Source: Bacteroidetes bacterium RIFCSPLOWO2_12_FULL_35_15
GTDB lineage: Bacteria > Bacteroidota > Bacteroidia > 2-12-FULL-35-15
NCBI GenBank assembly: GCA_001769385.1
Contig: MEPB01000066.1
Span: 1 to 58,449, forward strand
Reading direction: 5' to 3'
DNA length: 58,449 bases
The notes under the pieces: generated by a model
Told to the model about the DNA's origin: nothing
The model's input: only the letters and a program-made list of their open reading frames with translations
The model's database searches: none
Program-made: the position numbers and the translations under genes
Shown: piece by piece, positions 2,604 to 40,623 of the stretch
How positions within the stretch are numbered: the first letter of the stretch is position 1
How the letters are laid out: every line of letters begins with the position of its first letter

Positions 2604-3740
2604 TTAATCGCAAATCCAGTTTAAATAATTTTTCGGTGTAATCAATTCAAATTTGCTATCCGGGTAGGCTTGTTGCCATGCGCCAGGAGCTTTTATCTGT
2701 TTTTTTTCATTCCATTTTATTTCATAAGCAAATAATTTTCCGTTGCCATCTTCTATCCAGTCAATTTCTTGTTGTTGATGTGTTCTCCAAAAATAATTAT
2801 TTACAAGTATTCCTTTGTATTGCTGATATTTTATACGCTCGGCAATAACATAATTTTCCCATAATTCACCAACATCGTTTCGTAAATTGATACTATTAAA
2901 ATTCGCTATGAGTGTGTTACGAATGCCAATATCACAGAAATACCATTTACTGCTTTTAGTAATTTCATTTCTTAAATTCCTACTGAACCCTTGAAGCTTG
3001 AATACAACAAAAGTTTTAGCTAACAAATCCAAATAACGCTCTACAGTATTTTTACTCATTCCCAATTGTCGTCCAAGTTCTTCCATTGACACTTCTTTGC
3101 CAATCTGAAATGCAATTAAACGCAATAAATCAACGAGTTTAGAAGCATTTTTCACACCTTCAAATGCCAATATATCTTTGAATAAATAGTCGTTTACCAG
3201 TTCTTTCAAATAATTCACTTTATCTGTATCGCTTTTGTATTGCAACAATTCTGGATATGCGCCAAATAACAACCTTTCTTCTAAACGAGATTTAGTTTGG
3301 ATTAGCGTTTCTGTTTGCGAAAATTCCATCTGAGCCAACGGGTATAATAAAAAAGTTGTTTTTCTTCCTGTTAAAGGCTCTCCCAGTTTGGTTTTTAAAT
3401 CAAACATGGAAGACCCGGTTACAATTATTTTTATTCCCTTTATCTCATCAACCATCAATTTTAAGATGTTTCCAATATCCGGAACGTTTTGAGCTTCATC
3501 AATAAACAGAATGGTTTTGGTGCCGATTAAGCGTTTATAATTTTCGACAGTACGGTTTTTTAAAATCTCTATCGTTGAAAAATCCTCGCCATTTATCTCT
3601 AAAACGTCCTTTTTAAAATTAAGTAATACTTTTTTTATGAAGGATGTTTTTCCAATCCTCCTGGCACCAAGCAAAACAAGTACTTTGTTTGGTTTTAATT
3701 TTTTCAGAAAGGATTTTTCAATAGCTCTCGAAATGTACAT
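2604..3740 (-). CDS. AAA_14 ATP-binding protein with DUF4143 domain
   Basis: A 378-residue protein of the widespread, poorly understood AAA/DUF4143 family. Walker A is GARRIGKTSFIKK near residues 25-37, and Walker B is TILFIDEAQNV near residue 77. A winged-helix-like stretch follows (MEELGRQLGMSKNTVERYLDLL). The C-terminal domain has a PD-(D/E)XK-like arrangement, QEIDWIED then AYEIKW; DUF4143 is known to be related to that nuclease fold. The cellular role of the family is not settled. The gene lies downstream of radA but seems to have its own promoter, a TATATTTG -7 box about 18 bases before the ATG, behind two tandem palindromes. Confidence 0.9.
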   Translation of the reverse strand: MYISRAIEKSFLKKLKPNKVLVLLGARRIGKTSFIKKVLLNFKKDVLEINGEDFSTIEILKNRTVENYKRLIGTKTILFIDEAQNVPDIGNILKLMVDEIKGIKIIVTGSSMFDLKTKLGEPLTGRKTTFLLYPLAQMEFSQTETLIQTKSRLEERLLFGAYPELLQYKSDTDKVNYLKELVNDYLFKDILAFEGVKNASKLVDLLRLIAFQIGKEVSMEELGRQLGMSKNTVERYLDLLAKTFVVFKLQGFSRNLRNEITKSSKWYFCDIGIRNTLIANFNSINLRNDVGELWENYVIAERIKYQQYKGILVNNYFWRTHQQQEIDWIEDGNGKLFAYEIKWNEKKQIKAPGAWQQAYPDSKFELITPKNYLNWICD

Positions 3741-11682: not shown

Positions 11683-14600
11683 TTAATTATTCAGCATCAA
11701 TCGTAAACTAATTCCGGCATTGGTATTAGTTGATGGGAAGGAGGATGAAATTACCGGTTTGTTTATGATACGATCATAAAATAAACGAATATTGATTCGT
11801 TCGCTGATTACATAATCAGCTGCTACTTTTATAGAAATAATATTGGTTCCACCTGTTGTTTGGCTTACTCCTTCAACAATTCGTCTCATAATCGTTTCGT
11901 TTTTACGGAAAGAAAGATCGAGCTTCAAATTCAGGTCGCTCTTAATTTGTTTTCCTTTTATGGTTAATTTTTTTCCCATTGATAAATTTTTGATACGATA
12001 ACCTGTACCACCAATTATTTCGCGGCCAACCACTTCTGTTACGGTACGACTTGTTAAGCCTAGTGATAAGTTTCTATCCTTTTTATATTCAAAACTTAAT
12101 AAAACACTATTGTTTAAGGTCATATCCAGTTTTATAAGCGGGCTCCATTGTTCGGAAATGGTAATGGTATTAATGGAGTTTTGTGATAAAAAATTCGGGT
12201 TCCCGGTAATACTCGAAACATTTTCTTTTATTGCTGTATATCCATCTCCATCGGGGTCATAAAACATCAGGTTGGACTGATAACTTCCAACACTGTATGT
12301 AGAGCGATATGCATGGCTCAATGTAAAAGACTTAAAATATTTTTTTACGGCTTCAATTTTTGATAATCCATCATACGTTACCCGCCAGTTTGGAAGCGGA
12401 ATTTTCGGAAACGGATCTAAGGTTGAACTGTTTGGGTTTTTTCCGCCATAAGCAGCTAAAAATGCGGGTATCAATACATCCTGCGAAGTTTCGTTATATC
12501 CTTCTGCAAAAGTTCCAACAGAACCATTTGAGTTAGGATTTTCAGCACCCAAACGAGCAGAAATACTTGCTCGAGCATCCAGAAAATCTTGAAAAATGTC
12601 GTCTTTGTTTTTTACAAATGAGGTACGGTAAGCCATATAGGACATACTGAAATTACCGGTTTCAATTGGCGATTCATGAACAAAGCGATCCGCAATAGAG
12701 CCATCTACTTTTGAGGTATCATTCAGTTTCCATCTGAAAAATTCACTGTTGTTTTTAGATTGAGTTCGTGTTCCGGTTAACTCAATTTTCAGATCAGGGA
12801 ATGGTTCCAGATTAGCGCGTATATTCAGATTGTTGCTACTTGTTCGTGTATAGGGAGAATTCAGCGATGGGGCTTTTGATATCCAGTCGTTATTGGGATC
12901 ATTATCTTCTGTAGTTGCAATTGCCTGATCCCGGATATCTTTTTGACTGCCAAAAATAAATCCCGGTGTTGGTCCCTGAAAATTACTTCCCATTCCCATC
13001 AGGTGTGTTGATTGAGCATAGCCGGGTAATAAGGTCCCATTTGTCATGGAATAAGTTACCGTAACATTTTTTGCACTCATTAATACCCGGGCAAGGTATT
13101 CTACGATCACATAATTATTTTCTTTTTCCTTTTTTGTTGAATCCTTTGGCGTTTTTACAGATGGATTTTTTAATGCTGAAATAGCTTTTCCGCTTTTTGT
13201 AGTTTGTGGCTTTTTGTTGCTTTTTTGATTTATTTTTTTCAAATAAGGTATTTTATTATACAAGGTGACCATATTCAGTTGGCCGTTCCATTGTATATTA
13301 CGCGAATTCTGAATGGTGTTCCCAATTAAAGTGTCGGCTCCAACCGGAGCACGCTGCCAGCTATAAGTTCCTGAATAACGCACAGAGGCAGTAGTGAAAT
13401 CAAGCAAAGGCAATTTATTAATTGGGATATTGTAATTAATATTTACCTGATGATTATAATGTGTGGTGTTTCCCAGGTTTAGAAGATTGGTTTGGATAGT
13501 GTCTTTTTCATCTTTTGTATCAATTAATCCAACCGGTTCTAAAATTCGATTCTCATTATTTGCAGTAAAATCAAGCTTTAATGCTTTAGTAATATCATAT
13601 TTAAAGTCATAGGCCCTATTCATATTAAAACGCTTATTGTAAGTAGGAATAATGAGCATATCTCCACCGGTGGTATTGCGATTTTTTGTTGCACTGAAAT
13701 CCCTTACAACATCCGTTGAAAAGCCTAATTTATTTGGTAAAAGGTAAAAGTTTATATCCTTTATCAATAGCAAATATTTTGATTGTAAAATTTTCGTTTT
13801 TGCAAATGGCTTATAATTTTTAGGCGTTGGTGCAAAGTTGTAAATCAATCCACCGTGATAATTTTTTTGATTGGCATATTCAAGGGTTGAATTATGATGA
13901 TTTAATTCGCTGTATGAGTAAGATGCGGCCCAGTTCTCCACATCATAGACATGACTCTTTTTCGAGTTTTTTCCTTTGTCTTTTTTTACATTCGTAAAAT
14001 TGATACTATTTCGTTTTGTATAATCCTGAGTAGCGGCTTTTATATCTTTTCTGACATCTTCAGGAATAGTTTTGTCTTTTAATGTTTGTACCAGAAGTAT
14101 ATCGGGATCAAGCGGGTTGTATTGAGGGGTAACGAATTTTTCGGAATAGCCGATATACATTGGAACATGTATGTTGGATTCTTTTGGTAAAAATTTGCCT
14201 AATTCTATACTGGAAGAAATATCATATTGTTTAGAGGTTTCTCTTTTTCGTTCAGTTACTTTATTTTCGATGCTTCCAAAACCTGGTGTGTACATGCTTC
14301 CCGACAAGGAAATTGTTCCCAGGTCGGCTAGTTTAGCCGTTATTCGTGCATTTGCGGCCCATCCGCCTTTTTCATCAAAATCACTTAAGCGCAATTCATT
14401 TACCCAGATCTGGGCACATTTCGGGAATCCATCGTCATCAATCCCCGGACCCATTTTTTTAGGATTTTTAATTCCTATCATGATGGTTTTAATGGCACTT
14501 AAATTGGGATTCCCTTTTACTATAATAGTTCTGCTTTCATCAGAGACTTTATATTCAGTGGTTAGCGAAACTCCGGAACCATTATAAATTTCTTTGTTTC

Positions 14601-17600
14601 GGTTTGTCTTTGCATTTTGCAGCTTTTCAAATTCCAGTATCATTTCATTAGCTTCCGGCCATACTCTGTATTGATCATCAAGGTTGGTTCCATTGTAGTT
14701 TCCCGGTGCTGTTACTTGTAAGGGGATTTCATATTCATAATAGTTATCGGTATAATCGGTACCTAAACGAACAAAAAGTTGCAGGTCATTATTATTTAAA
14801 ATTTCATTTGTATTTGCGGAGGCTTCCGCATGAACATACATTTTTAATTTTTTGTAGGAACGTACATCCAGGCTTGTATTTTTATAAGCAGCACGTGATT
14901 TACCATCTTCTAAATTGCAAACAGTAAGCGACATCGACTGTTCATTCATTTGAATTAAATTAGCTGATGCTGCATTTATTTCGCGTTCGATGTTTGGAGG
15001 AAGAACATAGTTAACCGGTTGCTTGCTGCCATTTTCTTCAATGTTAACTGCAGAAATATCGAATTGAGTATTTGCGTCATCGTTCGGAATGTATAATCCG
15101 GGTTCCAACAGATCAAAACCATATTTGCGCCATTCTCCCCGAACCAGTTCCAGTTTGGCAAAACGCAGGATGATAGGTTTATCTACATTTTTATAGAACA
15201 TCCTTATAAAACGAATGGATTGAAAGTTTTCGATGGGGCCTATTTTTGATTCCGGTGTTTTTAAAGGAATTTTAAATTGATACCAGGTGATTGGTTTAGA
15301 GCTTCCATCTTTAATGTTCTGACCCGTTGTACGAAAAACATCGGTGATATAATTACTTCCTACGCCACCGGCAAAATCGCTTGGTTTTAATCCGATATGG
15401 TATTGGAAATAACTTTCAACAGTACTCAGATTGTTATCGCGGTTGATATCTTCGGTGCTTGGAATTTGTGTGGAAGATGTTGGATATGATCCGGAAGTAA
15501 TGGGTGAATTACCTTCCAGACCATTAAATTTTTTATAACGTTCCAGTGTTTTTAAACCAGCAGCATCATAATCACTTCCACGGAAATAATGAAAGTCGTC
15601 AGCCGAAGGGTCTCCGCTAATACCCGGATATGCTGCAGGAGTAACAATTGCTTGGGCTTTTACTAAAAAGCTATTAAAATAACTTTGCTCAGCACTCAGA
15701 TTTAAGCCATCAAAACCAACATCTTGAGCTGTTCTGTCGTTCGGGTCGCTGTTAAATGCATTTACCAATGATTGTGTTGTTGGGATAAGCCCCCAAACGG
15801 TGCTATCCACTGGAAGATTTAATCCTCCATTTTGTGATTGTGTACTTGGAGCAGGTAATACGTTTTCAGCGCTTTTGTAGGAATCACGCAATACATCCTC
15901 AGAAATATTTCCTACATCAAAATAGAGATCACCTGTTGTGTTCCAATTTCCTGCCGGATTATCACTATTAAACGGATCCATCACCCAAAACTGAATGTAT
16001 TCAATGTTTGCCGCTTCAAAATCATTGCTTTGAACGGCACGGGTAATACCTGCCCAACGCGTTTCCGGGTTTTTTAAGGAACCATCCGTTTCTAGCCCCG
16101 AAGAAATGGTTGTTGGATTTGAATCGTAATTATAAGGACCGCGTTCACTTGGATAATAAGCCATATCAAGTGTAGCAATATTCATTGTCTGCCCTGAAGA
16201 AGAAGGTTTGTTCGGAAATACTTCTGTTTCAGGAATTTCACGGGCAAAATTATTTGACATATCAGTGTCGGAAATACTTGTTGGAGTAATACTATTATCT
16301 CTTCGTAAGAAGGAGAGATCGATTACATACCATGCTAATTTGGCTCTGTTAAAACCATATGCTAAACTGTTTGAAGAATCTCCTTCCGGAAACATGCCTG
16401 GTTGTCCTTGTGGTGTGCTTGCAATATTCCATGCAGCCTGCGATTTCAGATCGATGGTAGATTGGCTGCCTTCAAAATCATCAAGATAGGAGTTCCCGCT
16501 TTTTCCAATCGCTTTACTGTGCCCGGGGATAAGATATGCAAATTCTCCTGCTGCAGTTATTGTACTCATTTCCTTGGTTTCAATGAGCGGAATTTTATCG
16601 ATCCAGCGAGTAAGGAAAGGAGCTTCTGTTCTGTAATTTCCATCAAAACCCCAAATGGTGTTGGAAATGGGTTCATCACCAATATTTACTTTTTTGGTCA
16701 TGGGACGCTCCGTCAGGTTCATGACGGTTCCGCCAATATTAAAATCTTTATTGATCTTATAATCAAGGTGCGTAGCCATCAATCTTTTTTGCTGAATTGC
16801 AAAAAGAGAATTGCTCTCTGTTGAAATTTTAATCGGGGTTCCTGAATTTAAAATTCCTTCGTTAATTATTTTTACGCGTCCCAGGGAATAATCAACAGTA
16901 TAATCAACATTTTCTGTCAGCTGAACACCACCTGCAGAAACAGTTACAGAGCCTTGTGGAACATTGGGTGCTCCCAATGAAATTTCGGAGCCGGATGCTG
17001 ATTTATAGGTTCCTTTTAATTTATAGCGATTCACTTGCGGGAACATTTGAGCCGATGTTCTGGTAGAATCATATAATTGTTGAAATACATAGCCATTTGC
17101 TTCTGTGGCTGAACAATTAGAGTTAAATTTTACAAACAGATCATTTCCAAAAGGTTCAATAACAGGAAAAATAACACGTCCGTTATTTGCATTAATAGTT
17201 ACCCCATCAATAAAATCGAAAACACCATCAGGTGTATGGTCCATTTGTTGATCCAGTTTATCCAGGCTAACAATTTGAATCAAGGGTTTGGATACAATTG
17301 CCGATTGACAAGATGAAACAGGTAAATAATTAATATCAGTTCCTGTTTGTGAGTTGGTATATAAAATATCTAATTTAAAATCCTGAGAATTTATCTGGTA
17401 GGCTCCTAATGAATAAATGTTTTTCATCATCAAATCCCACATAGGGTGCTTCGTATTGGTAGCAGAGCTTTTAAGCATCTTTGCATACATCACCTGGTTG
17501 GTAGCAATACCTCCATCCGAAAATTCACCTACGTTATATACGTTTCCATTATACGTGTATTGATAAGCAACAGCAAGTACCTGATCGGGATTTAATGTTT

Positions 17601-19032
17601 GATTCAATGAAATAAATCCAAGTTTTGTATTTAAGGTATATTCAGAAGGCTGTAATTTACGCGCATTAAATTTTTCAAAATTAATTTGCTCCTTCATTGT
17701 ATTTCCTGAAATAAATTTTATTTCTGAAACACAAGTATTTGGTGTTCTAACTGTTGTGTTGTTTTTGGTGTTTAAATACAAATTATTTTGATCATTGTAA
17801 GGTAATACATCCGCAGTATTATCTAAGATAAATCCTTGTACATCAACTGGAATATGAGGAGGTGTTCCGGCATTTGCTTCGGCAAGCTCAGCAAATCCAA
17901 CCACATCACGTGTATCAGTAGTAGCGTTGTTGCTGTTGGAGATCCAGACTTCTATTCTGTTAATATTGATACCTGAGTTCACAAAAGGTAAATTTGATAA
18001 GGCAGCATTATATTGATCACGGAAATACTGTCCCAGAAAAAAATGTTTGTTTGCTTCGTAAGCATCGCCAGCTACTTCAAAGGTGCTCACCTGGGCTCCA
18101 CCGGTAACTTCCACTTCCGATTTTTTTCCTTTTTGCTGTGATAATAAACTGGTTACTGTTAATCTGCCAAATTGCAATTGTGTTTTTATTCCGAATAATG
18201 TTTGACTACCGGTAATTAATGAACCAGTCAAGGGCATACTCACATTTCCTGCTTCAATTTTTTTTATGATCTCATCTTCATAACCGGTGTATTCTAATTT
18301 CATTTGATTTTCAAAATCAAATGTTGCTTCTGTATTATAGCTGGTTGTAAGTTTTAATTTGTCGCCAATTTTTCCAACAACATTTAATTGAATTTTTTCA
18401 TTGAAGTCAAAAGTGTTTACTTTACGTTGTTTTAAAGGAAGAGCAGGGTTGTCGGTTTTTGTTCCATTGTAAGCAAAAATTAATTCGGCAGAACCATTCG
18501 GACGAATATCAACTGTATTACCACCAAAGATCCGGTCAAAAATTTCGCCTCCAACATGTAATTTCGGAATAATAGCATTGCTCTGATTGTTTTGTGATTC
18601 GGCATGTGAACGGGCGTTCCAATAATTTTTCACCTGTTTCTTAAACATATAATCCTGGTATTCCTGGCTATCCATATAGGTGTCGGGACGATAATCCAGT
18701 CCGCCCATATTCTGACTTATAATATAATTTCCGGTGGTTGGATCGTATTCAACTTTAGTAGCGATGTTAGAGGGGTTATTTAACATCAAACCTCCTGAAT
18801 TAGGATAGTTTAATGGGTCACCGGTAGATTGATCCTGAAAATTATAATGAAGTATAACAGGTGTTGTTTCTTCGCCAGGTGGTGGAGTATCGATAGCGAA
18901 GAGTGCCTGATGCGCTTCCACTTCTTTAGCGTAATTATAGGAACTTAACTTTGCATCCGAACTAACAATTATGCTAAGTAACACTGATGAAACAGCTCCA
19001 ACAAAAAGATATTTTGAAAATGATCTAGCCAA
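11683..19032 (-). CDS. sprA: T9SS translocon / gliding motility protein SprA
   Basis: A 2449-residue protein, the size of SprA, the giant 36-strand outer-membrane barrel that forms the T9SS translocon (Sov in Porphyromonas). An N-terminal signal peptide ends near residue 27 (YLFVGAVSSVLLSIIVSSDA). Several repeated SprA segments are visible, including FLDDFEGSQSTIDL-like YLDDFEGSQS near 850, DLSFLRRDNS, IQFWVMDPF, the ARITAKLADLGTISLSGSM segment near 1530, and the C-terminal SLGLTSRTVTEVVGREIIGGTGYRIKNL. It exports the cargo proteins with sorting domains found elsewhere in this window. It begins 15 bp after the ruvA stop, so the two are probably co-transcribed. It is uninterrupted. Confidence 0.97.
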   Translation of the reverse strand: MARSFSKYLFVGAVSSVLLSIIVSSDAKLSSYNYAKEVEAHQALFAIDTPPPGEETTPVILHYNFQDQSTGDPLNYPNSGGLMLNNPSNIATKVEYDPTTGNYIISQNMGGLDYRPDTYMDSQEYQDYMFKKQVKNYWNARSHAESQNNQSNAIIPKLHVGGEIFDRIFGGNTVDIRPNGSAELIFAYNGTKTDNPALPLKQRKVNTFDFNEKIQLNVVGKIGDKLKLTTSYNTEATFDFENQMKLEYTGYEDEIIKKIEAGNVSMPLTGSLITGSQTLFGIKTQLQFGRLTVTSLLSQQKGKKSEVEVTGGAQVSTFEVAGDAYEANKHFFLGQYFRDQYNAALSNLPFVNSGININRIEVWISNSNNATTDTRDVVGFAELAEANAGTPPHIPVDVQGFILDNTADVLPYNDQNNLYLNTKNNTTVRTPNTCVSEIKFISGNTMKEQINFEKFNARKLQPSEYTLNTKLGFISLNQTLNPDQVLAVAYQYTYNGNVYNVGEFSDGGIATNQVMYAKMLKSSATNTKHPMWDLMMKNIYSLGAYQINSQDFKLDILYTNSQTGTDINYLPVSSCQSAIVSKPLIQIVSLDKLDQQMDHTPDGVFDFIDGVTINANNGRVIFPVIEPFGNDLFVKFNSNCSATEANGYVFQQLYDSTRTSAQMFPQVNRYKLKGTYKSASGSEISLGAPNVPQGSVTVSAGGVQLTENVDYTVDYSLGRVKIINEGILNSGTPIKISTESNSLFAIQQKRLMATHLDYKINKDFNIGGTVMNLTERPMTKKVNIGDEPISNTIWGFDGNYRTEAPFLTRWIDKIPLIETKEMSTITAAGEFAYLIPGHSKAIGKSGNSYLDDFEGSQSTIDLKSQAAWNIASTPQGQPGMFPEGDSSNSLAYGFNRAKLAWYVIDLSFLRRDNSITPTSISDTDMSNNFAREIPETEVFPNKPSSSGQTMNIATLDMAYYPSERGPYNYDSNPTTISSGLETDGSLKNPETRWAGITRAVQSNDFEAANIEYIQFWVMDPFNSDNPAGNWNTTGDLYFDVGNISEDVLRDSYKSAENVLPAPSTQSQNGGLNLPVDSTVWGLIPTTQSLVNAFNSDPNDRTAQDVGFDGLNLSAEQSYFNSFLVKAQAIVTPAAYPGISGDPSADDFHYFRGSDYDAAGLKTLERYKKFNGLEGNSPITSGSYPTSSTQIPSTEDINRDNNLSTVESYFQYHIGLKPSDFAGGVGSNYITDVFRTTGQNIKDGSSKPITWYQFKIPLKTPESKIGPIENFQSIRFIRMFYKNVDKPIILRFAKLELVRGEWRKYGFDLLEPGLYIPNDDANTQFDISAVNIEENGSKQPVNYVLPPNIEREINAASANLIQMNEQSMSLTVCNLEDGKSRAAYKNTSLDVRSYKKLKMYVHAEASANTNEILNNNDLQLFVRLGTDYTDNYYEYEIPLQVTAPGNYNGTNLDDQYRVWPEANEMILEFEKLQNAKTNRNKEIYNGSGVSLTTEYKVSDESRTIIVKGNPNLSAIKTIMIGIKNPKKMGPGIDDDGFPKCAQIWVNELRLSDFDEKGGWAANARITAKLADLGTISLSGSMYTPGFGSIENKVTERKRETSKQYDISSSIELGKFLPKESNIHVPMYIGYSEKFVTPQYNPLDPDILLVQTLKDKTIPEDVRKDIKAATQDYTKRNSINFTNVKKDKGKNSKKSHVYDVENWAASYSYSELNHHNSTLEYANQKNYHGGLIYNFAPTPKNYKPFAKTKILQSKYLLLIKDINFYLLPNKLGFSTDVVRDFSATKNRNTTGGDMLIIPTYNKRFNMNRAYDFKYDITKALKLDFTANNENRILEPVGLIDTKDEKDTIQTNLLNLGNTTHYNHQVNINYNIPINKLPLLDFTTASVRYSGTYSWQRAPVGADTLIGNTIQNSRNIQWNGQLNMVTLYNKIPYLKKINQKSNKKPQTTKSGKAISALKNPSVKTPKDSTKKEKENNYVIVEYLARVLMSAKNVTVTYSMTNGTLLPGYAQSTHLMGMGSNFQGPTPGFIFGSQKDIRDQAIATTEDNDPNNDWISKAPSLNSPYTRTSSNNLNIRANLEPFPDLKIELTGTRTQSKNNSEFFRWKLNDTSKVDGSIADRFVHESPIETGNFSMSYMAYRTSFVKNKDDIFQDFLDARASISARLGAENPNSNGSVGTFAEGYNETSQDVLIPAFLAAYGGKNPNSSTLDPFPKIPLPNWRVTYDGLSKIEAVKKYFKSFTLSHAYRSTYSVGSYQSNLMFYDPDGDGYTAIKENVSSITGNPNFLSQNSINTITISEQWSPLIKLDMTLNNSVLLSFEYKKDRNLSLGLTSRTVTEVVGREIIGGTGYRIKNLSMGKKLTIKGKQIKSDLNLKLDLSFRKNETIMRRIVEGVSQTTGGTNIISIKVAADYVISERINIRLFYDRIINKPVISSSFPSTNTNAGISLRLMLNN

Positions 19033-32911: not shown

Positions 32912-33658
32912 ATGAAAAACATTCTATTTAGTTTGATATTGATTTCTGCAAGTCTGATTTTTACAAGCTGCAACAATGCTACCGTTTCAACAGGTGATGG
33001 CTCCAATAAAGTAACAGGAAACGGAAAAGTAAAATCAGAACAACGGGAAATAAATCACTTTAATAAAATAGAAGCGGTGGGTGTATTTAATATTATTCTT
33101 TCGCAAAGCGACCAAGAATCGGTAAAGGTAGAAACGGATGAAAACATTCAGCCACTGATTTTAACTTCGGTAGAAAATGAAGTGTTAACGATCAGCATGA
33201 AAGACAGTACTTCTATTGATAAAATGAAAAAAATAAATATCTATATCTCCTTTACAGATCTTTCGAAACTGAATTCCACCGGTGTAGGAAGTTTAAAATG
33301 TGCCACTAAATTAAATTTAAAAGAATTTGAATTAGATGCAAAAGGAGTGGGTGCAACCGAATTAAATATCGATGCCGAAAAATTAACCATCAATTCTGAA
33401 ATTGTTGGAGCATTGGTTTTAGCAGGTACAGTAAAAGAGGTGATCATAAACAACAAAGGTTTGGGTGCTATTTCGGCATTTGACCTGAAAGCTGAAAATT
33501 TAAGTCTGCGTTCAGAAGGTGTTGGAGCTGCTGAAGTGTATGCTTCAAACGACTTGCGTGTTGATGTAAGTGGTTTAGGAAGTGTAAAATACAAAGGCAA
33601 CCCAAAAACAAAAAACATTAAAAAAGAAGGATTAAGTAAAGTGGAGCGGGCGGATTAA
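32912..33658 (+). CDS. GIN-domain (DUF2807) lipoprotein
   Basis: A 248-residue lipoprotein with lipobox IFTSC, acylated Cys20. The rest is a GIN (DUF2807) domain, a right-handed beta-helix-like repeat with the pattern GVGALELNIDA / GVGAAEVYASNDL / GLGSVKYKGNP. It opens with the usual HFNKIEAVGVFNIILSQSDQESVKVE. The function is unknown, probably an adhesin-like or envelope-stress surface protein. It is surrounded by repeats and has no obvious partners. Confidence 0.88.
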   Translation: MKNILFSLILISASLIFTSCNNATVSTGDGSNKVTGNGKVKSEQREINHFNKIEAVGVFNIILSQSDQESVKVETDENIQPLILTSVENEVLTISMKDSTSIDKMKKINIYISFTDLSKLNSTGVGSLKCATKLNLKEFELDAKGVGATELNIDAEKLTINSEIVGALVLAGTVKEVIINNKGLGAISAFDLKAENLSLRSEGVGAAEVYASNDLRVDVSGLGSVKYKGNPKTKNIKKEGLSKVERAD

Positions 33659-33734
33659 AAGTGTAAAGGCATTTGTTTTTAACCATTCTGTCATTTCGGG
33701 TCCTTCGACTTTTCCACGTTGAACGTAGCCCCCA

Positions 33735-33782
33735 GTTGAGCGTAGCCTCCCGGCTACGTTCTATTAAACAAGGCGTCTCGCC
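33735..33782. repeat. 48-bp direct repeat, left copy
   Basis: It matches 35872-35919 with 46 of 48 bases identical, in the same orientation. It includes the hairpins CGTAGCC-TCC-CGGCTACG-type and GGCG-TCT-CGCC. The pair brackets the 498-residue gene. Confidence 0.85.
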
Positions 33783-34087
33783 TTACTGTTATTCTCGCCA
33801 AGATGCCGGTTTTAAAAGGTTGTAGCGAGACGCTACGACCAACCAGGATCCCCACTAAGTAGGATCGAGCTCGGACTAAAACAAGGCTGGTTTGAAAAAA
33901 TATCCAATGATCTTATTGAGCAATCAACCTTTATTCTGTTCAACGAAAGTGTAAATTTTTGTGGGAATGTAAATAAAACTGTGTAGAGGTACCCGAAGAA
34001 CGAGTGCTATTTCAAATTCAAGGGGCTGCCCGAAGGGCGGGGGATGTTTTTCTCCCCATATCTTATTATTTAACGATATAAAAAGTG

Positions 34088-34127
34088 GGGGTAAAATTAC
34101 CCCCGGTAAAAAGGGTAATTTTACCCC
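34088..34127. repeat. Nested inverted repeat upstream of the 498-residue gene
   Basis: GGGGTAAAATTACCC at 34088-34102 and its exact reverse complement at 34113-34127, with a 10-bp spacer. Each arm is itself nearly palindromic, so the segment could fold as one long hairpin or two small ones. There is no T-run after it. Confidence 0.7.
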
Positions 34128-34354
34128 TTGACAAGCTTATAAATTTAGTTTACGTTTGCTGTAAGCTTTTGTGCTTTGAACAAGATGCAAAACCATGATA
34201 AAAGATAGGTTTTGGGATTGGGATTGGTTTAAATTGGAGGGGGATTTAATTTTGAGATAGACTGAATGAGTTTATATAAATGTTGGCGGTAATATTAAGG
34301 ATTGGGCTATCTATTGCAAAGAAACAATATTTCAGAAATTTAAAATGAACGACT

Positions 34355-35851
34355 ATGGTATTTTTCACAGACTTTTTTAAAATAAAAGAAGAAACTTTGG
34401 ACTCTTACGGAGCATTCAATATTTCACTTATTAATGATTTACCTTTATTCATAGACCCTTTCTTGCTTTTTGGAAGTAAAAAGGAAGAATATATTAAATT
34501 ACATCATAATATTTTAGATTATCTAACTTTCTTAAAATCTAAATCCAAAATAGGAAAAGCAACTGACGCAGAAATTAAATCTTGGTACAAATTTTCTGAA
34601 GTCAAACAAAACTGGTTAGGATACAGCGTTTCTGGAAATGGAGGAAGTGGTCTCGGAGAAAAATTTGGAAAAGCAATGTCTGCGAATATGCATATTGTTT
34701 ATGATGATTTAAATAAAGAAATAATTACGACAACATCTCATTTAGAAAAAGTAGGATTGTTTCAAATCGGAGTTGGTAAAGATAACATAAGTGATTTTTC
34801 CTGTAATTTATTAAAATCATACTTACTTGAATACACAGAAATATTTGCTAAAGCTCATCTTAAAAAAAATCAAGTAAAGGAAATTAATGTCGGAAAAGTA
34901 TATTTTGATTACGAATTACAGAGATGGATGCCAAAAAGGATTACTTTACCTTATTATAATAATGATTTTATCATTTTAACTCCTAAAGACTTACTTACAA
35001 AGGATGATAATTGGATTAATGGTAATGACTTAAAAGGTAATTTTGCTAGTATTTGCAGTTCCATTCCAAACGACCAATTAAGAAGTGAAATTCATAATTA
35101 CTTTCGTTCAAAATTACCAGCGCCAGTATTAACCGGAAAAGGTAGAAGAAAAAAAATAAAGAAGCCAACTCAAAAACAAAACTCTTATGCCATTAATGAA
35201 ACAATTCAAAAGTTTCCCGAGATATTAAATTATTATATTAAGTCGAAAGAAGAAAATAAAGAAGGTGCAAAAAACATATCTAAAGGAAAAGTTCAAGAAG
35301 TCGAAAAAATATTTAATGAAAATGTTTCTAAATTAATAAACCAACTTACTGAACAATCGAAATTTTATGAAATAAGCCACACTAGTTCATTTAAAGAAGC
35401 CATCAAAAGAGTAGAATTTCTAAAAGATGTAATAGAAAACAAAGATGGTTATAGATTATTTTATTTCAAAGGGCAACCAATCAAAAGAGAAGCGGATTTG
35501 CAAGTGATTTATCGACTTACATGGTATTCTTCTCCATATGATGTTAATCGAGAGGTCAATAATGGAAGAGGACCTGTAGATTACGCTGTTTCAAAAGGAG
35601 CAAAAGATAAAACTTTAGTTGAATTTAAGTTAGCCTCAAATAGCAAACTTAAAATGAATCTTGAAAATCAAGTTGGAGTATATGAAAAAGCGAGTGATAC
35701 TCAACAAAGTATAAAAGTTATATTGTATTTCGACAACTTCGAATATTTGAAAGTAATAGAAATTCTCAAAGAACTAAAATTAGAAAAAGAAAAAAGTATA
35801 ATATTAATAGATTCTGGAAACAATAAACCTTCAGCATCGAATGTTAAATAA
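34355..35851 (+). CDS. Unrecognised protein with PD-(D/E)XK nuclease-like C-terminus
   Basis: A 498-residue cytoplasmic protein that I do not recognise as a named family. N-terminal part 1-255: globular, with LPLFIDPFLLFGSKKEEY at 29-46 and a Gly-rich SGNGGSGLGEKFGKAM at 93-108. A basic linker follows (GKGRRKKIKK, 261-270), then helices 280-370. At 379-440 it has a nuclease-like layout: E379, D409 (GPVDYAV), E423/K425 (LVEFKLAS) and Q439 (ENQVGVYEKA), fitting PD-(D/E)XK. It lies alone between near-identical 48-bp direct repeats; its stop is 20 bp from the right one. Its codons are very A-rich. A defence nuclease or mobile cargo gene is inferred, not shown. Confidence 0.75.
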   Translation: MVFFTDFFKIKEETLDSYGAFNISLINDLPLFIDPFLLFGSKKEEYIKLHHNILDYLTFLKSKSKIGKATDAEIKSWYKFSEVKQNWLGYSVSGNGGSGLGEKFGKAMSANMHIVYDDLNKEIITTTSHLEKVGLFQIGVGKDNISDFSCNLLKSYLLEYTEIFAKAHLKKNQVKEINVGKVYFDYELQRWMPKRITLPYYNNDFIILTPKDLLTKDDNWINGNDLKGNFASICSSIPNDQLRSEIHNYFRSKLPAPVLTGKGRRKKIKKPTQKQNSYAINETIQKFPEILNYYIKSKEENKEGAKNISKGKVQEVEKIFNENVSKLINQLTEQSKFYEISHTSSFKEAIKRVEFLKDVIENKDGYRLFYFKGQPIKREADLQVIYRLTWYSSPYDVNREVNNGRGPVDYAVSKGAKDKTLVEFKLASNSKLKMNLENQVGVYEKASDTQQSIKVILYFDNFEYLKVIEILKELKLEKEKSIILIDSGNNKPSASNVK

Positions 35852-35871
35852 TAATACAGCTAACAGCCCCT

Positions 35872-35919
35872 GTTGAGCGTAACCTCCCGGCTACGTTCTA
35901 TAAAACAAGGCGTCTCGCC
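35872..35919. repeat. 48-bp direct repeat, right copy
   Basis: It has two mismatches to 33735-33782, same orientation, 2137 bp apart. It follows the stop codon of the 498-residue gene by 20 bp. Confidence 0.85.
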
Positions 35920-35956
35920 ATCTTATTATTTTTGTATTAATTAAAAATTAAATAAA

Positions 35957-36874
35957 ATGAAAAAACTACTACTATTCTTTGTTTTCATTTCTCTTTTTTT
36001 TAAAACCTTGAATTCCTATGCTCAACTAACAATGACGCATGGTGATGCTTATAATTACACTGTGGGAGATGTTTTTGTGATACATAGTTATAGTAAAAAT
36101 GTGTCGGGTCCTGGTGGCTACTCTTATTCACCAACAGATTCTTTATACGAAAAAACTACTATTTTAAACAAGTTCTTTTCAGCAAGCGCGGATACTGTTT
36201 TTTATAATTGTTTAATAAAAACAAAGTATGTTCATTATAATCAACCATACGCGCAAGCTCCCTATTTTACATTTACGTATAATACCCTTACCGATACATT
36301 ATTTTATACTGATTTAAATTCGCCCATACAAAATTATCCTTTTATGATGACCTATCCGTGCTATGCAGATAGTATTGATAGTGTTTACATTGAACCTAAT
36401 CCGTATTGCTCAAAAAAAATATGGCATAAAGAATATGTTTGGGGAACAAATTGTTTTGAAGAGCCTTTTCAAAAATATGATTATGTAGAAGGTTGTGGAG
36501 GTCCGTATTATTATTATTTTGATGCTTCAGGTGGATCTTTGAATTGGCGGGATTTGATCTATTACAAAAAAGGAATTGATTCGTGTGGTCAAAATGTTTC
36601 TTTTACTACAGGACTTGCCGAACTTTCAAATTTAGAATCTGAGATAACTGTTTTTCCAAATCCTATGAATACCTATACAACTATAACTTTTTCAGAACCA
36701 CAAAAACAAGCTACGATAATACTAACAGATGCACTTGGAAAAGAAATAAAAAAAATTAATTTTACAGGCAAGCAATTGCGAATAGAAAAAGAAGAAATGA
36801 AAGCAGGGATTTATTTTATTCGTATTATAGATGAAAAGAAAAGCGCTGTGAATAAAAAAATAGTGATACAGTAA
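35957..36874 (+). CDS. Secreted protein with T9SS type A sorting domain
   Basis: A 305-residue precursor: signal peptide KLLLFFVFISLFFKTLNSYAQ, an unknown domain of about 190 residues rich in Tyr and with scattered Cys (YNCLIKTKYVHY, NPYCSKKIWHKEYVWGTNCFE), then a complete sorting domain (VFPNPMNTYTTITFSEPQ, LTDALGKEIKKINFTGKQL, GIYFIRI, VNKKIVIQ). The last segment is nearly the same as in the LRR protein at 38416-40623, so the two share a recently copied or conserved sorting domain. It is presumably exported through SprA. The role is unknown. Confidence 0.85.
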   Translation: MKKLLLFFVFISLFFKTLNSYAQLTMTHGDAYNYTVGDVFVIHSYSKNVSGPGGYSYSPTDSLYEKTTILNKFFSASADTVFYNCLIKTKYVHYNQPYAQAPYFTFTYNTLTDTLFYTDLNSPIQNYPFMMTYPCYADSIDSVYIEPNPYCSKKIWHKEYVWGTNCFEEPFQKYDYVEGCGGPYYYYFDASGGSLNWRDLIYYKKGIDSCGQNVSFTTGLAELSNLESEITVFPNPMNTYTTITFSEPQKQATIILTDALGKEIKKINFTGKQLRIEKEEMKAGIYFIRIIDEKKSAVNKKIVIQ

Positions 36875-37128
36875 ATTTCGTAGAACGTAGCCTCTTGCCG
36901 CTACTGTTCGAAACCTTGAAAGTTTTGTTTTTTGTTCTTTTTGCAAATCCCGCATCTGCTATCTTCTTTTAAATATTCGCCTCGAATAGTGAAATTTTCC
37001 TAGGATGTGTTTTTTGGATTATTTTGAATTTATTTTTATATTGTTAAATGTGGAGTTAGATAACCACTAAAAAAAACGGGCGAAACTGAAAAGCCAAATG
37101 AGTAAGAAAAATCTACTACATACATAAA

Positions 37129-37422
37129 ATGAAAACTAAATTTTTATCAGTAAGCCTGGGAATAACAATGATGCTTATGGCCGCAGGATTTTTAATCCGA
37201 TCAATTAACGTTGCAAATGCAGTTCCTTCACCCGTAAAATTTTTAGAACAAGGTACCAGTAAGATCGGAAAATATCAGGCCAGTATTTGTGTTAAAGGTG
37301 ATGGGGAATCTGCCTACGCTTTGATCATGGATACCGAAACAGGAGCAACTGCTTATTATTATTGTTCGAATGGTTGGTATAAAAGTGCGGCACAACTTCC
37401 TGTCAATCATTTTGCGAAGTAG
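37129..37422 (+). CDS. Small putative secreted protein
   Basis: A 97-residue protein with a hydrophobic N-terminus (FLSVSLGITMMLMAAGFLI) ending near ANA, followed by a compact domain with two cysteines (ASICVKGDGESAYALIMDTETGATAYYYC). I do not recognise the family. Codon use and an ATG after an AT-rich leader support a real gene. Export and periplasmic or surface location are inferred from the N-terminus. It has no operon partners and lies just upstream of a repeat. Confidence 0.6.
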   Translation: MKTKFLSVSLGITMMLMAAGFLIRSINVANAVPSPVKFLEQGTSKIGKYQASICVKGDGESAYALIMDTETGATAYYYCSNGWYKSAAQLPVNHFAK

Positions 37423-37508
37423 CTCTTTTGTTGCAAATTTTATTCGAAAACCGTGCGCAAGGAATGAACAAACGCCCTTCGACAAAAGCTTAGGACAGGC
37501 TAAGTCGT

Positions 37509-37615
37509 GTTGCCAGTGTGGAGCGATCGTTTGTTCTTGAGCTTACACACTTACCGGCTCAAATGTACACTGTACATTTTGCCCTGTTTCTTTTTCATTA
37601 AGGAAAAAGAAAAAG
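37509..37615. repeat. About 107-bp interspersed repeat, copy 2 (reverse of 32628-32742)
   Basis: The core at 37530-37590 is the reverse complement of 32651-32711 with three mismatches. The two copies bracket about 4.8 kb of accessory DNA in inverted orientation. A TGTACACTGTACA palindrome lies inside. Confidence 0.85.
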
Positions 37616-37697
37616 GAAGAAATTTAAGTGAGTAGCACACCGATAACCAGAGGTTATTTTGTGTGAGATGCTGTTAACAGAAGTGCTCTACTACAAT

Positions 37698-38237
37698 TTA
37701 CCTCGTCATCGGCCATTTACCATTTTTATCTTTCTTCATATAATAATCGAGTGTCAGATCACCTTTTTCGTTATATATGGAAAGGCACCAGGTATGAGGT
37801 TGTTCTTCCCACTTCTTTGTATAGTCGAAGTGCTGGTGAAGTTTTCCTGATGGAAAATATTCTTTACAAAAAACATATTCACCAATTTTTAAATTATGAA
37901 CCGAACTTAATTGTCCTTTTTCATTTAACCATTTATATTCTCCATCGAGCAATTTTATTGCTCCACCTTTTCCATTAGTAGTATTTAGAAATTCTAATTT
38001 GTAATTTTTCTTTCCGCAAGGACCCATAGGATAAATATTTGCTCCGTGGTCATAATACGTATATCTGCAATAAACAGCCTTGGTGCTGTCTTTTAGCTCC
38101 TTCCAGTTATCATTTAAATAAACGATCCATTTCCCGTCTTTTTTTCCTGCAGGATCAAGTTGGTTTATCTTTTCTGCCTGTGCATAAGAAAACAGGTTAA
38201 GTGTAAAGCAGAATAGAACAGAAGTAATTGTTTTCAT
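37698..38237 (-). CDS. Secreted MORN-like repeat protein
   Basis: A 179-residue precursor starting at MKTITSVLFCFTLNLFSYAQA; the longer frame to 38279 adds residues before the signal peptide and is not used. The body has MORN/toxin-antitoxin-like strands of the form GKKDGKWIVYLN, LLDGEYKWLNEKGQL and YFPSGKLHQHFDY, seen in many Bacteroidota envelope proteins of unknown function. It has no T9SS signal. It stands alone, divergent from the LRR gene that follows. Confidence 0.72.
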   Translation of the reverse strand: MKTITSVLFCFTLNLFSYAQAEKINQLDPAGKKDGKWIVYLNDNWKELKDSTKAVYCRYTYYDHGANIYPMGPCGKKNYKLEFLNTTNGKGGAIKLLDGEYKWLNEKGQLSSVHNLKIGEYVFCKEYFPSGKLHQHFDYTKKWEEQPHTWCLSIYNEKGDLTLDYYMKKDKNGKWPMTR

Positions 38238-38415
38238 TTTGAAATTAATTTTTGTTTGTTTTATAGTATAACGTTGCATTTTAAAAAGGATACATTTTTA
38301 CCGAACTCTCTGAATATGCGTTACGGCTAAATGTGTTTTTTGAAATTAATATATTATTGACTTTAACGAATAGATGGATTACATTTGGATAAGCGTTCAT
38401 TTTAAACTATACATT

Positions 38416-40623
38416 ATGAAAACAAAAATTACTCTCCTATTTCTTTTGTTTGCTATGAACTTCGCTTCCAAAGCCCAAACGTACGTGACCATACCGGATA
38501 CTAATTTTGTTTATTTTCTGATAAACAATTATCCTACATGTATGAGTGGCTTTCAAATGGATACTACCTGTCCTGATATTCAAGGAGAAATAACGCTTGA
38601 TGTCGGCAATATGAATATTTCAAATTTAACAGGTCTTGAATATTTTTCAAATCTACATTATTTATATTGCTATAACAATCAGTTAACAAGCCTTCCTCAA
38701 ATAACATCGAATTCTCTTTTGGACTTCTATTGTGATAACAATATGTTAACAAATTTACCTGCAATTCCAAGTTCAGTTACTGAACTTACGTGCTCCAACA
38801 ATCAGTTAACAAGCCTTCCTTCTTTACCTAATCTTGATCGATTAGAATGCCAACATAATCAATTAACAAGCCTTCCTTCTTTACCAAGTTATCTTGTTTG
38901 GTTACATTGTGAACATAATCAATTAACAAGTCTTCCTGCACTACCAAATATGTTGTATTCCCTAACTTGTAATAATAATCAGTTGGCCAGCCTTCCTGCA
39001 TTACCAAGCTCTTTGCTTGGTATAACCTGCGACAGTAATTTGATTTCTTGTTTTCCGGAGTTTCCCAGTACTTTTATTTATTCACTCTATTTTGATATTT
39101 CGCATAATCCTTTCAGTTGCCTGCCAAACTATGTTCCTGCCATGGATGCAGGGACATTGGCATATCCATTATGTGTCAACGGTGACACCATCAACAATTC
39201 AAATGGTTGTGCAAGTGCAAAGGGTATTGTTGGTTTTACATATAAAGACAATACAAGTAATTGTATAAACGACATTGGCGATCAAGGGTTGATTAATATT
39301 CCAATAAAATTATATAACACAAGTGGTATTCAGTTGGCAGAAACCTATTCACTTGCAAATGGCATTTATAATTTTTGTGATACTATAGGAACTTATACAA
39401 CTCTATTAGATACAGTTGGAGCGCCCTTTTATTCTCAATGTATTTATCCCGGTATCGATTCTACCGTTACACTTTCAATCTCGACTCCACTGGTATCTGA
39501 TGTCAACTATGACATAGCATGTAAGGCAGGCTTTGATCTTGGAATACAATCAGTAATTCCTACTGGTTGGGTCTTTCCGGGTCAACAGCATGAAGTGAAT
39601 ATTATTGCTGGTGATTTAAGTCATTGGTATAACCTGAATTGTGCGAATGGGGTTAGCGGCCAGGTAAAAGTAATCGTCACGGGTCCTGTTACATATGCTG
39701 GTATTCAACCAGGAGCTCATACTCCTATAGTAGCAGGGAATGTTCTTACTTATACCGTAGCAGATTTCGGTGCAATAAACAATTCGCATGATTTTGGTTT
39801 GCTATTCACAACAGATAATACTGCTCAAACAGGAGATCAAGTTTGTATCAATGTAATAGTTACTCCAGTTATTGGTGATAATGATACTAGTAACAATTCT
39901 TATCAGTTTTGCTATCAGGCAATCAACTCCTATGATCCAAATATGAAAGAAGTTTATCCTGTTGATGTTCCTCCTGCATTCCATGATTATTTCACATATA
40001 CTATCCATTTTCAAAACACAGGAACAGCTCCTGCAATGAATATTCACTTGGTAGATATGCTAAGTAATAATTTAGATCCAGAAACTTTTCAAGTCACAAA
40101 TTACAGCCATAACAATATCACTTCTCTAATTGGCAATGTATTAACTATTCGTTTTCCAAATATACAGTTACCTGATAGCACCAGTAATTCGGAAGGTTCT
40201 AAAGGTTTCGTGCAATACCGTATTAAGCCAAAAGCAAATTTACCTCTAGGCACTCAAATAACAAACACTGCAAATATTTATTTTGATTATAATAACCCGA
40301 TAAATACAAATACAACTGTTAATACCTATACAGCTACCGCAAATGTGCAAAATTTAAATAGCACAATTAATAGCGTTTTAATTTCTCCTAATCCTTTTAC
40401 ATCACAAACTACCATTATGTTTGACAAAGAACAAAAAAACACTACCATAAAAATAATGGATGTATTGGGTAAAGAAATAAAAACAATAAACTTTACCGGC
40501 AAACAATTAGTTTTAGAAAAAGGAGACATGCAGAAGGGGATTTATTTTGTTCAGGTAATTGATAAGTCCTTCGACAAACTCAGGATGACAAATGTGGTAA
40601 ATAAAAAAATAGTGATTCAGTAA
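38416..40623 (+). CDS. Leucine-rich-repeat surface protein with T9SS sorting domain
   Basis: A 735-residue precursor starting at MKTKITLLFLLFAMNFASKAQ; an in-frame ATG at 38374 adds 14 unlikely residues. About seven 20-21-residue LRRs of the type NQLTSLPALPNMLYSLTCN follow. Next come a carbohydrate-binding-like/SdrD-type beta domain (GIVGFTYKDNTSNCINDIGDQG) and a DUF7619-type domain (YDPNMKEVYPVDVPPAFHDYFTYTIHF), then a sorting domain. In the last domain an extra SFDKLRMTN lies between VQVIDK and VVNKKIVIQ; it is encoded by a REP-like repeat fragment at 40567-40589. Adhesion or degradation is possible; the role is unknown. Confidence 0.88.
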   Translation: MKTKITLLFLLFAMNFASKAQTYVTIPDTNFVYFLINNYPTCMSGFQMDTTCPDIQGEITLDVGNMNISNLTGLEYFSNLHYLYCYNNQLTSLPQITSNSLLDFYCDNNMLTNLPAIPSSVTELTCSNNQLTSLPSLPNLDRLECQHNQLTSLPSLPSYLVWLHCEHNQLTSLPALPNMLYSLTCNNNQLASLPALPSSLLGITCDSNLISCFPEFPSTFIYSLYFDISHNPFSCLPNYVPAMDAGTLAYPLCVNGDTINNSNGCASAKGIVGFTYKDNTSNCINDIGDQGLINIPIKLYNTSGIQLAETYSLANGIYNFCDTIGTYTTLLDTVGAPFYSQCIYPGIDSTVTLSISTPLVSDVNYDIACKAGFDLGIQSVIPTGWVFPGQQHEVNIIAGDLSHWYNLNCANGVSGQVKVIVTGPVTYAGIQPGAHTPIVAGNVLTYTVADFGAINNSHDFGLLFTTDNTAQTGDQVCINVIVTPVIGDNDTSNNSYQFCYQAINSYDPNMKEVYPVDVPPAFHDYFTYTIHFQNTGTAPAMNIHLVDMLSNNLDPETFQVTNYSHNNITSLIGNVLTIRFPNIQLPDSTSNSEGSKGFVQYRIKPKANLPLGTQITNTANIYFDYNNPINTNTTVNTYTATANVQNLNSTINSVLISPNPFTSQTTIMFDKEQKNTTIKIMDVLGKEIKTINFTGKQLVLEKGDMQKGIYFVQVIDKSFDKLRMTNVVNKKIVIQ
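40567..40589. repeat. REP-like fragment inside the LRR gene
   Basis: This 23-bp stretch is identical to the reverse complement of 57659-57681, an intergenic REP-like repeat. Here it is in frame and translated. Confidence 0.8.

What the first reader, a model, noticed from the sequence alone, without database searches (positions are those of the whole stretch)
33735..35919. Unrecognised 498-residue nuclease-like gene between near-identical direct repeats
Seen: a single gene whose C-terminal 120 residues show E379, D409, E423, K425 and Q439 in a PD-(D/E)XK layout, bracketed by two 48-bp direct repeats with 46 of 48 bases identical; the stop lies 20 bp from the right copy. Established: such nucleases are frequent in restriction and abortive-infection systems. 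Inference: the gene may be a self-contained, horizontally moved defence or cargo unit. Nearby inverted repeats and an A-rich codon bias agree. No known system name fits.
Basis: partly seen in the sequence, partly recalled or inferred. Interest (0 to 1): 0.72.

Follow-up and report, generated by a model that had tools for sequence, protein, structure and literature searches.

The report
Widespread single-gene candidate anti-phage nuclease
The gene encodes a two-part protein, an unfamiliar front domain joined to a DNA-cutting domain, from a widespread but unstudied family that in other bacteria sits beside restriction genes and as cargo of phage satellites, so it is probably an anti-virus defence gene; the two repeats around it are ordinary scattered repeats, not the ends of a mobile unit.

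Summary
The gene (34355-35851, 498 aa) and the repeats (46 of 48 identical) are real. The C-terminus is a predicted PD-(D/E)XK nuclease: E379, D409, E423, K425 and Q439 are kept in 87-88 of 88 family proteins. The N-terminal domain (high-confidence model, no PDB match found) is that of PADLOC's uncharacterised candidate PDC-M36A. The window protein has a different nuclease module from the PADLOC reference and no PDC-M36B partner was found: a solo variant. Some relatives sit at the ends of type I and III restriction operons or on plasmids. In E. coli (17 of 5,426 genomes) the relative is cargo between integrase and psu of P4-type satellites, a known defence hotspot (14 of 14 loci opened; alone there in 13, with an IS in one). 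The repeats are dispersed palindromic elements (8 places in this genome; 17 of 36 genomes of the genus, own included), so they do not define a mobile unit. The gene is probably acquired all the same: within the genus intact only here, low G+C, missing with its surroundings at the syntenic site of one near relative. Most likely mechanism, inferred: the N-terminal domain senses infection and releases the nuclease. Defence activity is untested; three name searches of an open-access library found no paper.

The parts
34355..35851 (+). 498-aa gene: N-terminal PDC-M36A-type domain + helical linker + C-terminal PD-(D/E)XK nuclease
   Evidence: ORF; PADLOC; conservation, model, fold comparison
34355..35134 (+). 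N-terminal domain, residues 1-260; invariant D28, D34, P35, E82, G89, G97, D143, D147, P210 in 61 aligned sequences
   Evidence: PADLOC PDC-M36A over residues 5-255; alignment A7; model of residues 1-300 with pLDDT 92.7, pTM 0.88
35258..35356 (+). predicted long helix, residues 302-334, joining the two domains
   Evidence: model secondary structure
35372..35848 (+). C-terminal PD-(D/E)XK nuclease domain, residues 340-498; codons of E379 35489, D409 35579, E423 35621, K425 35627, Q439 35669
   Evidence: 88/88, 87/88, 88/88, 88/88, 87/88 conserved; predicted core; VIA-align matches over 334-489
33735..33846 (+). full copy of a dispersed palindromic (REP/MITE-like) element that contains the left 'direct repeat'
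   Evidence: 8 matches in own genome, 17 of 36 genus genomes; three predicted hairpins, -44.4 kcal/mol
35872..35930 (+). partial copy of the same element: the right 'direct repeat'
   Evidence: 90% over element positions 1-59; 46/48 core
34088..34127 (+). perfect 15-nt inverted repeat (arms GGGGTAAAATTACCC), in a stretch with further matches elsewhere in the genome
   Evidence: matches on C97, C10, C68, C27; predicted hairpin -24.8 kcal/mol
34128..34158 (+). possible promoter of the Bacteroidota type (TTG...TAnnTTTG, consensus recalled); a second candidate at 34224-34254
   Evidence: regular-expression match only, no control made
32912..33658 (+). upstream neighbour, DUF2807 protein
   Evidence: 4.7e-42; relatives, paralogues included, in 36 of 36 genus genomes
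35957..36874 (+). downstream neighbour with a Por_Secre_tail sorting domain, also low in G+C; not a PDC-M36B partner
   Evidence: (8.5e-12)

Best explanation
A horizontally acquired, single-gene candidate anti-phage defence protein. The N-terminal domain (about 260 residues, with conserved acidic and glycine-rich positions) is the sensing and control part; the C-terminal PD-(D/E)XK domain is the effector that cuts DNA once infection or foreign DNA is sensed. Because E. coli relatives stand without a methyltransferase as the cargo gene of P4-type satellites, the nuclease must be kept off or be selective in an uninfected cell, so a trigger-gated nuclease (phage DNA destruction or abortive infection) is more likely than a classical restriction enzyme. 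Shown: domain make-up, conservation of the catalytic set, contexts, patchy distribution. Inferred: nuclease activity, trigger, gating, outcome for the cell.
For: Catalytic set kept in 87-88 of 88 proteins; model with the PD-(D/E)XK core, whose structural alignments over residues 334-489 are mostly to members of that superfamily by title or my recall, including EndoMS, BglII, Can2, SduA/Shedu, McrC, NucC and LmuA (Z only 4.5-5.9 for these); Pfam PDDEXK_9 in 13 of 69 family members; PADLOC PDC-M36A in 69 of 69. Context: among 92 loci entered, HsdS-like genes lie within five genes in 10 and HsdM-like genes in 9, and the gene lies 56 bp or less behind, or overlaps, an hsdS, hsdR, type III restriction or methyltransferase gene in L051, L061, L066, L067, L070, L071, L080, L082 and L085 (single labels partly my reading). 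Septu PtuA adjoins it in Janthinobacterium. The E. coli relative, 52% identical, is in 17 of 5,426 genomes, and in 14 of 14 opened loci it follows an integrase at tRNA-Leu with psu on the other side. The int-psu interval of P4 is a published defence hotspot (PMC9122126, passages). The same N-terminal domain occurs with a second PD-(D/E)XK-like module (D...E-x-K...Q in 7 of 7) and in an A+B gene pair: sensor constant, effector swapped.
Against: I know of no activity test of any member. No recognised defence gene lies close to the window copy; the nearest candidate found, a PDC-S01 match, is about 31 kb away. Only the best 80 of 418 genome relatives were held, and recurrent partners are few: Pfam on 105 adjacent proteins gives at most 4 for any one family (first 25 of 92 families listed). 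Foldseek gave no PDB match at E <= 0.001, and the Z values are in the range that models without clear match often reach. The 14 opened E. coli loci share one integrase protein and are probably one satellite lineage, so they may be close to one event. The Janthinobacterium relative lacks both D409 and Q439.
Confidence: 0.72

Rival explanations
1. A modification-dependent (type IV-like) restriction enzyme: the N-terminal domain reads a modified base or structure on incoming DNA and the nuclease cuts it directly, without cell suicide.
For: Stands without a methyltransferase in P4-type satellites; PD-(D/E)XK core; the second class of C-terminal module resembles the ECKN type of Mrr enzymes (resemblance recalled).
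Against: No known base-reading domain was found by Pfam in the window protein or among the 25 most frequent Pfam families of 69 family members; the N-terminal model had no PDB match, which does not exclude one.
Confidence: 0.15
2. An accessory of restriction-modification systems: a back-up effector set off when restriction is blocked by phage anti-restriction proteins, in the manner described for PARIS (PMC9122126, passages).
For: Gene directly behind type I or III restriction genes, or a methyltransferase gene, with overlap or gaps up to 56 bp in nine loci.
Against: Cargo without R-M genes beside it in the 14 opened E. coli loci; no R-M family among PADLOC matches of 38 window ORFs at 1e-15. 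So it does not need an R-M partner next door.
Confidence: 0.08
3. A cargo gene that acts against plasmids or competing mobile elements rather than phages, or a host DNA-repair nuclease.
For: Present on plasmids (23 records, 10 of them covering at least 80% of the query); the fold also occurs in repair enzymes such as EndoMS.
Against: Patchy distribution (6 of 148 genomes, own and partial matches included; 17 of 5,426 E. coli) speaks against housekeeping repair.
Confidence: 0.05

Closest known systems
PADLOC candidate system PDC-M36 (PDC-M36A + PDC-M36B)
   Same: N-terminal half: PDC-M36A over residues 5-255, 7.7e-25; the same N-terminal residues are invariant in both groups.
   Different: The C-terminal nuclease module is of another class (profile positions 253-457 unmatched), and no PDC-M36B gene was found beside it; L177 has two M36B genes next door and L105 one.
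RefSeq 'DUF8370 family protein' (E. coli WP_001572310.1)
   Same: 52% identical over 497 columns, full length.
   Different: Name only, on 1 of 17 E. coli copies; the other 16 are 'hypothetical protein'. No paper found with the term DUF8370.
Shedu (SduA), Can2, NucC, McrC and other PD-(D/E)XK immune or restriction nucleases
   Same: Superfamily fold at the C-terminus (predicted; VIA Z 4.7-5.6 for these four) and the D, E-x-K, Q residue layout.
   Different: SduA is not among PADLOC matches of the window protein up to E = 10; the others were not tested one by one. Different N-terminal domain.
Cargo of the P4-satellite int-psu hotspot (PMC9122126)
   Same: Relatives occupy this interval in E. 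coli (14 of 14 opened).
   Different: The window copy is not in a recognised satellite. I saw passages of the paper only; whether its supplementary table lists this gene was not checked.
REP/RAYT-type palindromic repeats (PMC3733652, passages)
   Same: Short dispersed palindromes; the genome holds 11 Y1_Tnp transposase-family matches.
   Different: A GTAG/CGTC tag and linkage of the repeats to a transposase gene were not tested.

Membership tests
PD-(D/E)XK nuclease superfamily | D, E-x-K and flanking catalytic residues conserved | tested here: met
   E379 88/88, D409 87/88, E423 88/88, K425 88/88, Q439 87/88; both exceptions are the Janthinobacterium protein L018
PD-(D/E)XK nuclease superfamily | alpha-beta-beta-beta-alpha-beta core | tested here: met
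   predicted model only: H379-388, E396-398, E410-413, E419-426, H432-446, E452-458; alignments to solved members up to Z 5.9 for EndoMS and 6.6 for 7et0
PD-(D/E)XK nuclease superfamily | metal-dependent DNA cleavage | not testable with these tools
   needs the bench
PADLOC PDC-M36 | PDC-M36A profile match | tested here: met
   7.7e-25 over residues 5-255; 69 of 69 family members
PADLOC PDC-M36 | match over the whole M36A profile, C-terminal part included | tested here: not met
   profile positions 9-252 of 457 only; L105 and L177 match 16-454 and 1-457
PADLOC PDC-M36 | adjacent PDC-M36B gene | tested here: not met
   no ORF of 60 aa or more lies between 33658 and 34355, and the next gene downstream has a Por_Secre_tail; no M36B among the PADLOC families matched at 1e-15 by 38 window ORFs of 150 aa or more. 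ORFs under 150 aa, such as 37129-37422, were not scanned
Shedu (SduA) | SduA / DUF4263 profile match | tested here: not met
   not among PADLOC matches of the window protein up to E = 10, HMMER filters on; 1 of 69 family members at 0.0044
Composite mobile unit bounded by the two direct repeats | repeats specific to the gene's insertion, single copy at the empty site | tested here: not met
   repeat dispersed in 17 of 36 genus genomes; no repeat in the fetched G024 stretch, which lacks the whole 4.7 kb. One syntenic site only
Dispersed palindromic (REP-like) repeat | several dispersed copies with hairpin potential | tested here: met
   copy number is low (8 places at E <= 0.001 in 5.4 Mb) compared with typical REP families
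Dispersed palindromic (REP-like) repeat | mobilisation by a RAYT transposase | not tested
   11 Y1_Tnp matches in the genome, some broken; linkage to the repeat not examined

The most novel reading that the evidence does not exclude
The N-terminal domain is a new fold and a new kind of infection sensor (or enzyme: D28, D34, E82, D143 and D147 with a glycine-rich loop could be a ligand or metal site), used as a constant module with interchangeable PD-(D/E)XK effectors. The solo form is then an undescribed one-gene anti-phage system, spread from E. coli phage satellites to Bacteroidota and beyond.
Probability: 0.4. Interest if true: 0.7.

Novelty: new variant of a known kind. Interest (0 to 1): 0.52.

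Why it matters
It turns an anonymous gene into a concrete, testable one-gene defence candidate whose relatives carry 14 phylum labels among the 78 genome rows of the tree and include a standard laboratory species. The N-terminal domain has a confident model but no PDB match found here, and it is shared by two classes of nuclease effector, so it may be a general sensing module. The case also shows that near-identical flanking repeats can be scattered background repeats rather than the ends of a mobile unit.

Tried and rejected
Repeats as att sites, target duplications or IS ends: rejected; the same element lies at 8 places in the genome, these two included, and in 17 of 36 genus genomes. Clean 2.1-kb empty site: not found. 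In G024 the DUF2807 gene is followed within about 150 bp by the relative of window 38374-40623, so the whole stretch 33659-38373 is missing there; in the fetched stretches of G027 (C38), G023, G006, G026 and G015 the DUF2807 relative is the only gene of the neighbourhood found.

Known family names: no Pfam match for the window protein, NCBIfam only far below cut-off, no phage record. phrog_30194 matches the full length, function unknown. Sequence searches against PDB gave only weak matches that I took as chance (in 119 the best, 0.00017, is to a designed protein over 27 residues with no stretch passing on its own). Foldseek against PDB and BFVD gave nothing at E <= 0.001. VIA-align of the N-terminal model: best Z 3.5 over residues 223-296; this does not prove a new fold. 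In one search two Rep15 entries (Z 5.2 and 5.1), not nucleases, rank among the superfamily members.

Control for defence neighbours: 38 window ORFs (39 less the 2,449-aa one at 11683-19032) gave at 1e-15 DndA/SspA (2 proteins, cysteine-desulfurase type by my recall), PDC-S01 (1) and mad2 (1). The mad2 profile matches all 14 control genomes and PDC-S01 9 of 14, so PADLOC profile matches alone are weak evidence; the mad2/mad5 rows were disregarded for that reason. The neighbour scans (105 adjacent and 84 second-next proteins) list families, not proteins, so no enrichment figure is given. Those sets come from the 80 genome loci and left out proteins under 180 or over 1,100 aa. Gene calling in flanks was a greedy longest-ORF rule and produced some spurious ORFs. 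Labels such as HsdM, HsdS, HsdR, type III and Gabija-like for single loci rest on BLAST clusters plus my reading of the sequences; the PADLOC and Pfam scans support the classes.

Literature: searches for PDC-M36, DUF8370 and PDC-M36A found no paper in the open PMC library; no preprints and no supplementary files were searched. The preprint that PMC12988326 cites for the PDC candidates was seen only as a citation. PMC9122126, PMC12988326, PMC11811056, PMC12255303, PMC10121019 and PMC3733652: passages only; other papers: search listings.

Full report
What was checked. The ORF at 34355-35851 (+, 498 aa) exists. The gene stands out in composition: G+C 27.9% and GC3 18.8%, against 36.3 +/- 2.7% and 29.6 +/- 3.0% for 39 other ORFs in the window. 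The neighbour at 35957-36874 is also low (30.8%, 20.9%).

The repeats. They are not specific to the gene. The left copy is part of a 112-nt element with three predicted hairpins (33735-33846; -44.4 kcal/mol); the right copy is its first half. The element has 8 matches in the window's own genome, these two included, and matches in 17 of 36 genomes of the genus, own included. Its AAGGCGTCTCGCCTT hairpin occurs 6 times in the genome with up to 1 mismatch, against 0 for the reversed control pattern. The genome holds 11 matches to Y1_Tnp, the kind of transposase linked to REP repeats in the literature (PMC3733652, passages); whether they move this element was not tested. The perfect inverted repeat at 34088-34127 lies in a stretch that also matches other places in the genome.

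Acquisition. Of 148 genomes searched, 6 match, own included. The genus has 36 genomes (handles G000-G035), all among those 148 to judge by their handles; within it only the window's genome holds the gene, and G032 has a decayed C-terminal piece on another protein (L003). In G024, whose upstream genes are 82-98% identical, the DUF2807 gene is followed within about 150 bp by the relative of window 38374-40623. So the locus is variable, but the boundaries of the event are not the two repeats. Gain here or loss in G024 cannot be told apart from one site; the composition favours gain.

The C-terminal domain. The 88 proteins are the window's, 78 from genome contigs, 4 viral and 5 plasmid. E379, E423 and K425 are invariant; D409 and Q439 are kept in 87, and both exceptions are the same protein, L018 of Janthinobacterium. 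The AlphaFold2 model from 64 rows (mean pLDDT 84, pTM 0.74) shows helix 379-388, strands 396-398, 410-413 and 419-426, helix 432-446, strand 452-458. Foldseek gave no PDB match at E <= 0.001. VIA-align, a second look at Foldseek's candidates, gave 26 chains at Z >= 5. The rows shown are mostly PD-(D/E)XK proteins by title or my recall: 7et0 (CinB) Z 6.6 (rmsd 3.4, 115 aligned), EndoMS 5.9 (4.4, 100), BglII 5.7 (3.9, 123), Can2 up to 5.6 (4.8, 117), McrC 5.3, SduA 5.3 (4.6, 123), NucC 4.7, LmuA 4.5. Two Rep15 entries (Z 5.2 and 5.1) are in the list and are not nucleases. These Z values are modest; the consistency of the list and the residues carry the argument. Pfam PDDEXK_9 matches 13 of 69 family members (best 8.1e-05).

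The N-terminal domain. PADLOC PDC-M36A matches residues 5-255 (7.7e-25) and all 69 family members scanned. Modelled alone from 61 rows, residues 1-300 give pLDDT 92.7 and pTM 0.88. No convincing PDB match was found by Foldseek (0 at E <= 0.001), VIA-align (best Z 3.5 over residues 223-296) or profile search (best E 0.35). D28, D34, P35, E82, G89, G97, D143, D147 and P210 are invariant across both classes of protein.

Two architectures. Their C-terminus, and that of L004-L006, L158 and L159, shows D...E-x-K-N...Q in 7 of 7 and is not found by a profile of the window-type C-terminus, while the N-terminal profile finds all seven. The window type keeps the N-terminal domain, has its own nuclease module and no M36B was found. 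The window-type module also sits on an unrelated, apparently membrane-anchored start in L003 (broken by a TGA). So sensor and effector appear to be swapped as modules.

Distribution. A scan of genome contigs found 418 relatives, of which the best 80 were kept; viral contigs gave 6, plasmids 23 records (10 covering at least 80%), phage records none. In a tree of 78 of these 80 (two split genes left out) plus the window gene, the rows carry 14 phylum labels and need 18 label changes where 13 is the least: mostly grouped by phylum, with some mixing that may or may not be transfer. Some labels come from metagenome bins; the Methanobrevibacter row lies next to a Bacteroidota row on very short branches and is probably a binning error. 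In a phylum-wide sample the M36A profile matches 18 of 395 genomes, own included, several of them weakly or in part.

Context. Of 79 genome loci with an upstream gene called, it is on the same strand in 68, and within 60 bp in 18. BLAST clusters within five genes, over 92 loci, show HsdS in 10 loci, HsdM in 9, a tyrosine integrase in 6, a type III-like methyltransferase in 5, and a Gabija-like ATPase-helicase pair in 3 (labels explained under Tried and rejected). Examples of tight coupling: hsdR-hsdM-hsdS-gene in L067; the same with one more gene before hsdS and a 4-bp overlap in L085; hsdM-hsdS-...-restriction subunit-gene in L080 and L082; helicase-methyltransferase-gene with overlap in L070. 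PADLOC at 1e-15 lists Specificity_I and REase_II among adjacent proteins and MTase_I, MTase_II, DrmD, BrxH, GajB and PDC-S05 among second-next ones. Pfam on 105 adjacent proteins: Methylase_S 4, Phage_integrase 4, ResIII 3, HSDR_N 2 (first 25 of 92 families). Recurrent partners are thus few and varied. On plasmids, Septu PtuA in Janthinobacterium and RmrA in Roseomonas adjoin the gene. Near the window copy no defence gene was recognised; a PDC-S01 match lies at 2613-3740.

The E. coli relatives. The Mangrovibacter gene (L079) finds 17 of 5,426 E. coli genomes at 80-81% DNA identity. I opened 14 of the 17 (H28, H34 and H37 not opened). In all 14 the gene follows the same integrase protein (WP_001572309.1) at tRNA-Leu; in 13 psu is next on the other side, in one (H24) an IS21-type element lies between gene and psu. 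This interval is the hotspot in which others found and tested defence systems (PMC9122126, passages). The protein of one such locus (L183) is 52% identical to the window's over its whole length, with the catalytic motifs kept.

Reading. The best explanation is a one-gene defence protein with a sensing N-terminal part and a nuclease effector. Because it is cargo in the satellites with no methyltransferase, it must be gated or selective; I favour gating by an infection signal. Confidence 0.72 for defence by a conditional nuclease; the trigger and outcome are unknown.

Novelty. The N-terminal half belongs to a named candidate (PDC-M36A), so this is not categorically new. The solo form with another nuclease and without M36B is a variant I found no description of (searches; preprints and supplements not searched).

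Noticed in passing
window 36880-36909: By eye, a third hairpin-like fragment resembling the palindromic element follows the next gene, so the genes here seem separated by such repeats (sequence).
   Followed up: no
window 34088-34127: A second palindrome (GGGGTAAAATTACCC arms) whose stretch matches places on C97, C10, C68 and C27 of the same genome.
   Followed up: no
window 2613-3740 (-): Match to PADLOC candidate PDC-S01 (4.3e-159); the profile also matches 9 of 14 control genomes, so it may be an ordinary gene.
   Followed up: partly
L167 1-1968: A protein of at least 655 aa joins a part with an SGGLDS motif (QueC-like, recalled) to the second class of C-terminal nuclease module.
   Followed up: no
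L003 1480-2139 (-): In a genome of the same genus the nuclease module lies on a different, apparently membrane-anchored N-terminus and is broken by a stop.
   Followed up: partly
L031, L041, L049, L099: A helicase protein (Pfam SLFN-g3_helicase in 3 of 105 adjacent proteins; GIY-YIG-like start by my reading) and a small MazG-like protein recur near the gene in four loci: possibly a further defence pair.
   Followed up: no
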